From Mycobacteriales bacterium (GTDB taxonomy: Bacteria > Actinomycetota > Actinomycetes > DATLTS01): a stretch of 32,488 nucleotides of DNA. Shown piece by piece: positions 18,053 through 31,719 of this stretch (position 1 is the stretch's first letter; every line of letters starts with the position of its first letter). The notes below the pieces were generated by a model. The model did not search any database. It saw nothing but the letters and a program-made list of their open reading frames with translations, and was not told the DNA's origin. The position numbers and the translations under genes are program-made. Location: positions 1 to 32,488 of the forward strand of contig DATLTS010000033.1 of NCBI GenBank assembly GCA_035533475.1, read 5' to 3'.

Positions 18053-18382
18053 ATGGGCTTTCTGGACAAGGTCAAGGCACAGGCCGAACAAGCGGTGACG
18101 AAGGCCCAGCAGGGGGTGGCCCAGGGTCAGGCCAAGCTCGACACGATGCAGGCCCGCAAGCAGCTCGACAAGCTGCTCCGCGACCTCGGGGCCGCCGTCT
18201 ACGCCGAGCAACGGCAGGGCGGTCCGGGCACGGCGGTGGCCACCGCCGTGAGCGCGATCGACCAGCATGCCGCAACACAGGGGCCGATCGACCTCAGCGA
18301 TGGCCCGGCTGCGCCACAGCCGGGCGTTCAGCCGGGCGTTCAGCCGGGCGTTCAGCCGGGCGACTTCACCATCGACGGCTGA
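18053..18382 (+). CDS. small helical protein with repeat-encoded tail
   Basis: A 109-residue protein of unknown function. Residues 1-60 are strongly amphipathic helix with coiled-coil-like character (KVKAQAEQAVTKAQQG, then ARKQLDKLLRDLGAAVYAEQ). Residues 85-103 are a Pro/Gly/Val/Gln tail made by a 12-base tandem repeat. It has no membrane segment or signal. The ribosome binding site ATGGAGAAAAGC precedes the ATG. Similar short helical proteins are common in actinomycetes, but I cannot name the family. Linkage to the AIM24-type gene 55 bases upstream suggests a joint role. Confidence 0.82.
   Translation: MGFLDKVKAQAEQAVTKAQQGVAQGQAKLDTMQARKQLDKLLRDLGAAVYAEQRQGGPGTAVATAVSAIDQHAATQGPIDLSDGPAAPQPGVQPGVQPGVQPGDFTIDG
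18317..18362 (+). repeat. 12-base tandem repeat inside the small helical gene
   Basis: The unit CAGCCGGGCGTT occurs three times exactly, followed by ten bases of a fourth copy. It encodes a Q-P-G-V repeat in the C-terminal tail. Copy number can change without breaking the frame because the unit is a multiple of three. Confidence 0.9.
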
Positions 18383-27918: not shown

Positions 27919-28302
27919 TCAGACCTGGATCACCGTCACGTCGGGCATCGCCTGGTAATCGCGATCCTGGGTGACGACGGGCAGTCCGCCGGCCACGGCC
28001 GTGGCAGCGATGAGAGCGTCCAACACGGGTACCCGGCGCCGTCGGCCGCGCAGATCGGCGACGAGACGTGCGAACACGCGAGCGACCTCGACGTCCACCG
28101 GGAGTGGATCCCACGTGGACTCGACGGCGGACAACGTGGCCAGCCGTGTCGCGCGTTCCTTCTTACCCGCTTGCAGGACGCCGAGAGTCAGCTCGGCCAC
28201 GGTGATCACCGAAACCTCGGTCTCGTCGACGCCGGCGAGTTCGCCCAAGGGCCGACCCTTCTCCGTGGCCACGAAGAAGGACGTATCGAGCAGCGCTTTC
28301 AC
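27919..28302 (-). CDS. vapC: VapC-type PIN-domain toxin
   Basis: A 127-residue PIN-domain ribonuclease, the toxin of a type II VapBC pair. The acidic metal-binding residues are in place: D6 (LLDTSFF), E37 (VAELTLG), D95 (PVLDALIAAT) and D113 (TQDRDY). Length is normal. The GTG start at 28302 overlaps the vapB stop as GTGA, so translation is coupled, which keeps toxin below antitoxin. VapC toxins cut tRNA or rRNA; the target here is unknown. It is intact, unlike the remnants to its left. Confidence 0.93.
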   Translation of the reverse strand: MKALLDTSFFVATEKGRPLGELAGVDETEVSVITVAELTLGVLQAGKKERATRLATLSAVESTWDPLPVDVEVARVFARLVADLRGRRRRVPVLDALIAATAVAGGLPVVTQDRDYQAMPDVTVIQV

Positions 28303-28544
28303 AGATCGTCCGTGGTGTCGGGCAGTGATTCGCGCACATCGCGCAGCAGCCCACGATCGGCTGCGCTGCGCTGGACCACCGCGAGCGCGGCTGCCAGGGG
28401 GACAGATCGACGGCGTCGCAGGGGGATGAGTTCCGCCACCGGCCGACGGTCAACCGTCACGGTCATTCGCTCACCTTGCTCGACGCGGCGCAGGACTTCA
28501 CTGACCCTATTGCGCAACTCTCGGACAGATACGGACACGGTCAT
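28299..28544 (-). CDS. vapB: Phd/YefM-family antitoxin of VapBC
   Basis: An 81-residue antitoxin. The N-terminal block VSVSVRELRNRVSEVLRRVE, followed by GERMTVTVDRRPVAELIP, is the DNA-binding Phd/YefM fold; the C-terminal 30 residues, ending in ESLPDTTDDL, would wrap the toxin. The ATG at 28544 is chosen over an upstream start 28 codons earlier, because the Phd domain begins there and a promoter-like element lies just before it. No Shine-Dalgarno is visible, so a leaderless transcript is possible. It overlaps vapC by four bases. Autoregulation through its promoter would be expected for this family. Confidence 0.9.
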   Translation of the reverse strand: MTVSVSVRELRNRVSEVLRRVEQGERMTVTVDRRPVAELIPLRRRRSVPLAAALAVVQRSAADRGLLRDVRESLPDTTDDL

Positions 28545-28552
28545 AGCCCAAG

Positions 28553-30381: not shown

Positions 30382-30421
30382 TCGGGTCGCGGGTTACTTG
30401 AACGTAGGGGTGCGGGTTGGA

Positions 30422-30448
30422 GTTCAGGTTATTCCGGAAAACCTGAAC
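30422..30448. promoter_or_regulatory. perfect inverted repeat upstream of fic, candidate operator
   Basis: Arms GTTCAGGTT (30422-30430) and AACCTGAAC (30440-30448) flank the 9-base spacer ATTCCGGAA, itself containing the palindrome TTCCGGAA. A further exact half-site lies at 30492-30500, and a weaker 7/9 match at 30394-30402. Such an arrangement is typical of a dimeric repressor site. The Fic protein's C-terminal helical region or an unlinked regulator could bind it; this is inference. A TAGGGT -10-like element (30468-30473) lies between the inverted repeat and the extra half-site. Confidence 0.6.
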
Positions 30449-30491
30449 GTGCGACGGCGCCTACAGCTAGGGTTGAACTACAAAGCTGTGA

Positions 30492-30500
30492 GTTCAGGTT
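30492..30500 (+). repeat. third copy of the GTTCAGGTT half-site
   Basis: An exact nine-base copy of the left arm, 70 bases downstream of it in the same orientation and 47 bases before the fic start codon. The shared context extends to GAGTTCAGGTT (30420-30430 and 30490-30500). Confidence 0.7.
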
Positions 30501-30546
30501 TCGGGCCTACGACCTGAGCCTGACGGCAAACGGCGGAGGCCGAGTA

Positions 30547-31719
30547 TTGGACTTTGCAGCCATCGGACGGTCCCCGATCGGGCGCCTCACCTCCATCACC
30601 GGTATTGATCCAAAGACGGACACCCGCTGGGACTACTGGGCCTTCGTTCCGACCCCTCTCCCAGACGCACCCGCGCTGGCGCTGGCCACCCTGGATCTGG
30701 CGACGAAAGCGGCCATGGAGGTGGCGCGCCTGGATCAGGCGGTATCGCAGCTCCCCCGGCCGGAGATCCTGGTCCGGCCGATCGTACGGCGCGAGGCGAA
30801 GAGCACCTCCGCGCTCGAAGGCACCTTCGCGAGCTTCGACGAGGTGCTGGAGTCGGACTTCCTTGAGGACCGGCAGTTGTCCTCGGAGCAGCGGGAGATC
30901 CGGAACTACGTCCTGGCGACGGACGAGGCGGTGCGGCTTCTGCCCACGCTGCCGATCAGCCGTCAGCTGGCCGGGAGGCTTCAGAAGGTCATCGTCAAGG
31001 GCACCCCGGACGACTCCTGGGACACCGGTGACATTCGGCAGCGCCAGGTGGCGATCGGGCCGAAGAACCGTCCGATCGCCGAGGCGCGCTTCGTGCCGAG
31101 TCCCCCCGGCGACCAACTCACCGAGGGCGTGAGTGACTGGGAAAAATGGCTGAACGCCGACAACCACGTCCCGATCGTGGCGAAGATGGCACTCGCGCAC
31201 TACCAGTTCGAGACCCTGCACCCCTTCGCGGACGGCAACGGACGGCTCGGTCGGCTGATCGCGATCCTGCAGCTCATCCAGGAGGGCATCCTGCGCTGGC
31301 CGGTGCTGAACCTTGCGCCGTGGCTGGACGAGAACCGCGACGCCTACCAGGACGGTTTGCTGCGGGTCACCGAAACCGGCGACTACGACCCATGGGTGTG
31401 CTTTTTCGCCGAGGCGGTGCGTAAGCAGGCGCACGACGGCGTCGAGAAGATCGCTCGGCTGCTGCGTCTCCGTGATGACATGGTCTCCGAGCTGCGGGCC
31501 GGCAGTGTCAGAGGTTCAGCGCTGCACATCGCTGAGAACCTGATCGGGTATCCGGTCATCGACGTCCCGACCGCCCGGGACATGATTGGCAAGACGTTCG
31601 AAGCCGCGAACCAGGCCGTCGCGCGTTTAGTGGATGTCGGCATTCTCCGGGAGATCACCGGGCGCCCGCAGAATCGACTGTTCGTCTGTCAGCGCGCGTA
31701 CCTCACGATCCAGGAGTGA
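30547..31719 (+). CDS. class II Fic-domain protein (AMPylator type)
   Basis: A 390-residue Fic protein that probably transfers AMP to a target hydroxyl. The catalytic loop HPFADGNGRLGR (residues 225-236) matches HPFx(D/N)GNGRxxR in full. The inhibitory helix motif (S/T)xxxE(G/N) is TSALEG (87-92), N-terminal to the Fic core, which places it in class II (self-inhibited). The N-terminal block (SPIGRLTSITGI, then WAFVPTPLP) and a C-terminal winged-helix-like part (IDVPTARDMIGKTFEAANQA, then VARLVDVGILREITG) are usual in this family. TTG 30547 is chosen because GGAGG lies seven bases before it and the protein family begins there; the frame is open 168 bases further up through the repeat-bearing region. 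It is preceded by an inverted repeat that may control it and followed by two hairpins. The target is unknown. Confidence 0.9.
   Translation: MDFAAIGRSPIGRLTSITGIDPKTDTRWDYWAFVPTPLPDAPALALATLDLATKAAMEVARLDQAVSQLPRPEILVRPIVRREAKSTSALEGTFASFDEVLESDFLEDRQLSSEQREIRNYVLATDEAVRLLPTLPISRQLAGRLQKVIVKGTPDDSWDTGDIRQRQVAIGPKNRPIAEARFVPSPPGDQLTEGVSDWEKWLNADNHVPIVAKMALAHYQFETLHPFADGNGRLGRLIAILQLIQEGILRWPVLNLAPWLDENRDAYQDGLLRVTETGDYDPWVCFFAEAVRKQAHDGVEKIARLLRLRDDMVSELRAGSVRGSALHIAENLIGYPVIDVPTARDMIGKTFEAANQAVARLVDVGILREITGRPQNRLFVCQRAYLTIQE

What the first reader, a model, noticed from the sequence alone, without database searches (positions are those of the whole stretch)
30394..30546. Perfect inverted repeat plus extra half-sites in front of a Fic gene
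Nine-base arms with a 9-base spacer that itself carries TTCCGGAA, a third exact half-site 70 bases downstream of the first in the same orientation, and a weaker copy upstream. This clustering fits cooperative binding by a dimeric regulator around a TAGGGT-type promoter, yet no regulator gene is adjacent. The Fic protein has a C-terminal winged-helix-like part, so self-regulation is a testable idea.
Basis: partly seen in the sequence, partly recalled or inferred. Interest (0 to 1): 0.62.

Follow-up and report, generated by a model that had tools for sequence, protein, structure and literature searches.

The report
Self-operator array of a Fic gene
The repeats in front of this AMP-transferring (Fic) enzyme gene are very probably binding sites for the enzyme's own DNA-binding tail, because most of its relatives carry similarly spaced repeats whose letters change along with the protein, so this toxin-like enzyme seems to switch off its own gene.

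Summary
The repeat is real: GTTCAGGTT 30422-30430, AACCTGAAC 30440-30448 and a third exact copy at 30492-30500, unique in the genome. It is part of a larger array. Among 53 Fic homologs, 26 promoters carry repeated half-sites (p<=0.05), including all 12 closest, against 6 of 75 control promoters. The half-sites alternate in orientation with a fixed 41-bp direct period (inverted copy at 21/20 bp, two helical turns), a period found only in Fic promoters (p=7e-8; controls p=0.92). The half-site differs by clade (CCTGAAC, CTTGAAA, CTATAAA, CGTTAAA, GTGATAC and others) and follows the Fic protein, not the host family. The closest orthologs share no neighbouring gene. The protein is a class II, SoFic-type Fic with a confidently predicted C-terminal winged helix. 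Best explanation: the Fic dimer represses its own promoter by binding the array. The only precedent found is CccR of Yersinia pseudotuberculosis, whose operator has another geometry. Binding is untested. New variant of a known kind.

The parts
30397..30402 (+).
   Evidence: sequence
30422..30430 (-). Half-site, first arm GTTCAGGTT (core TTCAGG 30423-30428)
   Evidence: conserved in L025 and L034 with the same 70-bp spacing
30440..30448 (+). Half-site, second arm AACCTGAAC (core CCTGAA 30442-30447), 13 bp from the first core (family value 14)
30472..30477 (+).
   Evidence: register-fixed trio scan
30492..30500 (-). Half-site, third exact copy GTTCAGGTT (core TTCAGG 30493-30498)
30513..30518 (+). 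Half-site CCTGAG (GACCTGAGCC), 14 bp after the previous core, overlapping the predicted -10
   Evidence: aligned with CTTGAA/CTGGAA at the same place in L034, L025 and L026
30508..30513 (+). Predicted -10 element TACGAC, by position homologous to TAAACT in orthologs L025, L034 and L026
   Evidence: inference; not mapped
30535..30539 (+). Shine-Dalgarno-like GGAGG, 7 nt before the TTG start
   Evidence: sequence
30547..31719 (+). fic gene, 390 aa: Fic_N + Fic (HPFADGNGRLGR, inhibitory TSALEG) + C-terminal winged helix (helices 324-331, 340-347, recognition helix 351-364)
   Evidence: Pfam; PADLOC SoFic; AlphaFold2 pLDDT 92.8; Foldseek; orthologs start at the same residue

Best explanation
The array is the operator of a self-repressing Fic gene. 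Each half-site is read by the C-terminal winged helix of one Fic subunit. Two inverted half-sites 21 bp apart (core start to core start) take one dimer; the next half-site, 20 bp further on and over the -10 element, lies on the same DNA face, so dimers can line up cooperatively and block RNA polymerase. The window holds two such groups 70 bp apart. Shown: the array, its geometry, its conservation, its divergence along with the protein; predicted with confidence: the winged-helix fold. Inferred: that Fic itself binds, that binding represses, and that dimers cooperate.
For: Repeated half-sites in the fic promoter: 26 of 53 homologs at p<=0.05, all 12 closest at the test floor p=0.005, Fisher combined p about 1e-24; control promoters 6 of 75. 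Fixed geometry: all 12 best spacing pairs fall on one line (direct period 41 bp), also without the window's own clade; 31 of 52 loci individually significant against 3 of 51 downstream controls; Wilcoxon p=7e-8 against p=0.92 for control promoters. The half-site differs by clade and tracks the Fic protein: mean motif similarity 0.56 for close Fic in different host families against 0.39 for distant Fic in the same host family. Half-site similarity correlates with recognition-helix similarity after controlling for the Fic core (partial Mantel rho 0.23, p=0.01). No shared neighbouring gene among the closest orthologs, and their promoter DNA aligns no better with the window's than shuffled DNA although the half-sites are kept. 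Operator unique in the genome. C-terminal winged helix in a confident model and full-length match to SoFic structures. Precedent: CccR represses its own promoter through its C-terminal HTH and inverted repeats (PMC9755527).
Against: No binding or expression data. The window's own trio geometry is not significant alone (p=0.15); its upstream half-site is out of phase (20 instead of 15) and one gap is 24. The Fic core also correlates with the motif when the helix is held constant (rho 0.32), so common descent explains part of the match. The clearest residue-base pairing (residue 352 Q/E with G, P with T) changed only about twice on the tree. About 40% of loci, mostly distant ones, are not significant. 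CccR's operator has a different spacing (N26).
Confidence: 0.8

Rival explanations
1. A separate regulator encoded elsewhere in the genome binds the array and controls fic as part of a regulon.
For: No binding data exclude it; many defence genes are run by separate HTH repressors (general knowledge).
Against: The two-arm operator is unique in the genome, so no regulon is visible. The half-site varies among Fic genes within one host family yet is shared between families that carry close Fic proteins. No neighbour gene is conserved.
Confidence: 0.1
2. The array serves mainly as an activity switch for the enzyme: binding DNA drives dimerisation and changes AMPylation or deAMPylation, and transcription control is secondary.
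For: CbFic2, also a class II Fic with a C-terminal winged helix, dimerises on DNA and changes activity, with 20-bp DNA sufficing (PMC10628234). The 21/20-bp half-site spacing is of that size.
Against: The sites sit on the promoter and often over the -10 in homologs, which points to transcription. Not exclusive of repression.
Confidence: 0.07
3. Chance, or a remnant of a mobile element or duplication, with no function.
For: One perfect 9-nt inverted repeat is expected by chance in 32 kb; the 70-bp spacing could reflect a duplication.
Against: Same half-site and spacing in orthologs whose other promoter DNA does not align with the window's; family-wide 41-bp period.
Confidence: 0.02

Closest known systems
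CccR of Yersinia pseudotuberculosis (PMC9755527)
   Same: Fic protein with C-terminal HTH that represses its own promoter by binding inverted repeats as a dimer
   Different: Its operator is one AGATAATCAT-N26-ATGATAATCT pair; here half-sites alternate with a 41-bp period, usually three or more. CccR is a secreted T6SS effector; nothing here suggests secretion, and its likeness to SoFic is low (29% over 45%, per that paper).
SoFic (Shewanella oneidensis, PDB 3EQX/3ZCN) and the E. coli Sofic anti-phage system (PMC12249575)
   Same: Same domain order and full-length fold (TM 0.80-0.87); PADLOC SoFic model at 1e-85; class II inhibitory motif
   Different: NCBIfam SoFic equivalog cut-off not reached (154.5 of 550 bits). 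I found no operator described for Sofic; the E. coli system is reported with a small downstream antitoxin AS1.
CbFic2 of Coxiella burnetii (PMC10628234)
   Same: Class II Fic with C-terminal winged HTH; DNA binding induces dimerisation
   Different: Its cognate DNA is unknown (random DNA was used); weaker structural match (TM about 0.6).

Membership tests
Class II Fic AMP-transferase | Fic motif HPFx[D/E]GN[G/K]R | tested here: met
   HPFADGNGRLGR, residues 225-236; H225, P226, D229-R233 invariant in 36 homologs
Class II Fic AMP-transferase | N-terminal inhibitory motif (S/T)xxxE(G/N) | tested here: met
   TSALEG with E91, G92 invariant
Class II Fic AMP-transferase | AMP-transfer activity | not testable with these tools
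SoFic (PADLOC / NCBIfam) | Full-length profile match | tested here: met
   PADLOC SoFic 1.1e-85 over residues 29-385
SoFic (PADLOC / NCBIfam) | NCBIfam equivalog cut-off (550 bits) | tested here: not met
   154.5 bits: a relative of SoFic, not the SoFic equivalog
SoFic (PADLOC / NCBIfam) | Protects against phage | not testable with these tools
Self-regulating Fic-HTH (CccR-like mechanism) | C-terminal winged HTH | tested here: met
   AlphaFold2 model: helices 324-331, 340-347, 351-364 and short strands 368-369, 379-380; SoFic structures align over the full length
Self-regulating Fic-HTH (CccR-like mechanism) | Inverted half-sites in its own promoter, conserved in orthologs | tested here: met
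Self-regulating Fic-HTH (CccR-like mechanism) | Two 10-bp half-sites with a 26-bp spacer, as in CccR | tested here: not met
   Family spacing is 15 and 14 bp between 6-bp cores
Self-regulating Fic-HTH (CccR-like mechanism) | Protein binds its promoter and represses | not testable with these tools

The most novel reading that the evidence does not exclude
The operator array acts as a built-in antitoxin: promoter-bound Fic dimers are held in a non-toxic state, so the gene's own promoter controls both the amount and the activity of a phage-defence enzyme, and anything that strips the dimers off the DNA releases both. Across the family the winged helix and its half-site have diverged into many mutually distinct self-operator pairs.
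Probability: 0.15. Interest if true: 0.85.

Novelty: new variant of a known kind. Interest (0 to 1): 0.62.

Why it matters
Class II Fic proteins with a winged-helix tail are widespread and include a phage-defence system, but what DNA the tail reads is known for one protein only, as far as the searched papers show. This comparison proposes the natural binding site for dozens of them, with a fixed 41-bp architecture and clade-specific letters. That makes the role of DNA in controlling these enzymes directly testable and offers a set of distinct protein-operator pairs.

Tried and rejected
The exact two-arm pattern in genome contigs gave 13 scattered hits against roughly 4 expected by chance for 18 fixed bases; I did not examine their neighbours. 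No relative in viral contigs; only distant ones in phages. A first pass read minus-strand loci in the wrong orientation and wrongly found no array in L026, L034 and others; corrected. The convergent pattern CCTGAAC-N-GTTCAGG has no hit in the own genome because the convergent pair in the window is degenerate. A one-residue recognition code (352 Q/E with G, P with T) looked perfect but rests on about two changes on the tree, so I do not count it as independent evidence. The second Fic of the genome (L015, 27%) has no array by the half-site test (p=0.58; its trio score has p=0.04). The PADLOC, Pfam and NCBIfam names were not taken as proof of defence function.

Full report
Observation. The gene behind them encodes a 390-residue Fic protein. 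TTG 30547 with GGAGG 7 nt before it is the likely start, because orthologs begin at the same residue. Three exact copies of a non-tandem 9-mer within 80 bp occur nowhere else in the window. The zero-mismatch two-arm motif occurs once in the genome.

Protein. Pfam finds Fic_N and Fic; PADLOC finds SoFic at 1e-85; the NCBIfam SoFic equivalog cut-off is not reached. The Fic motif and the class II inhibitory motif are intact and their key residues invariant in 36 homologs. The AlphaFold2 model (pLDDT 92.8) has a C-terminal winged helix whose recognition helix is residues 351-364. It matches SoFic and a Mycobacterium marinum Fic structure over the full length.

Comparison. Searches of relatives, the same class, one family of that class, a second family, the phylum and one other class, plus six plasmid loci, gave 53 Fic loci. 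A blind test for repeated 9-mers in the 160 nt before each start was significant in 26 of 53 and in all 12 closest homologs, against 6 of 75 promoters of other genes in the same loci. The half-sites differ: AAACCTGAAC four times in L025, TAGCTTGAAC-type about seven times in L035, AACCTTGAAA four times in L039, TCCTATAAAT three times in L019, CAGATTTAAA-type five times in L027, GTTATAGC-type four times in L037, CGTTAAA-type in L028 and L049, ACAATGTCA twice in L045 and L047, GTGATA-type pairs in L021 and L024. The L045, L047, L021 and L024 repeats were read by eye and are not all significant alone.

Geometry. A scan of all spacing pairs for one half-site, an inverted one and a direct one found that every one of the 12 best cells lies on one line: a direct period of 41 bp with the inverted copy in between, at 21/20 bp in the register of the 6-bp core. 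The peak remains without the window's clade and is absent downstream of the genes and in control promoters. In the window the second group fits exactly: GTTGAA 30472-30477, 15 bp, TTCAGG 30493-30498, 14 bp, CCTGAG 30513-30518. The first group is looser: CTTGAA 30397-30402, 20 bp, TTCAGG 30423-30428, 13 bp, CCTGAA 30442-30447. The 70-bp distance between TTCAGG copies is the same in L025 and L034. The window's own trio is not significant alone (p=0.15); its support comes from copy number and from the family.

Promoter. In many homologs a TANNNT hexamer lies just before GTG or ATG, which suggests leaderless starts, and the last half-site overlaps it. The matching position in the window is TACGAC 30508-30513, inferred by alignment.

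Who binds. No adjacent gene is conserved among the closest orthologs. The motif follows the Fic protein across host families and diverges within one host family. Half-site similarity correlates with recognition-helix similarity beyond the Fic core (rho 0.23, p=0.01), although the core also correlates (0.32), so descent is part of it, and the cleanest residue-base pairing rests on about two events. With the CccR precedent (PMC9755527: HTH-dependent self-repression through inverted repeats), Fic self-repression is the best explanation. CbFic2 (PMC10628234) shows that DNA can dimerise such an enzyme and change its activity, which leaves open a second role for the array.

Limits. No binding, expression or transcription-start data exist here. 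Gene starts were chosen by rule. Shuffle p-values have a floor of 0.005 or 0.003. The papers searched are open-access only, so an earlier report of this array could have been missed.

Noticed in passing
27919-28302 (-), 28299-28550 (-): PIN-domain toxin with an overlapping Phd/YefM-type antitoxin gene, about 2 kb upstream of fic.
   Followed up: no
18303-18354: 12-bp tandem repeat (unit about GGGCGTTCAGCC), the only other exact 9-mer triple in the window.
   Followed up: no
L025, L034, L026, L027, L030, L040, L045, about position -15 to +3 of each fic gene: Many homologous fic genes seem to have leaderless transcripts: a -10-like TANNNT just before GTG or ATG, with a half-site over it.
   Followed up: partly
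L065 and L066 (Microvirga and Phyllobacterium plasmids), upstream of fic: Distant alphaproteobacterial Fic-winged-helix genes also show 41-bp-period repeats with GATAA-type half-sites (p=0.003 each), so the arrangement may extend beyond actinobacteria.
   Followed up: partly
L028 and L049, upstream of fic: Two Fic proteins from different classes have the same recognition-helix stretch VAYPTANNA and similar CGTTAAA-type half-sites although they are only moderately similar overall.
   Followed up: partly
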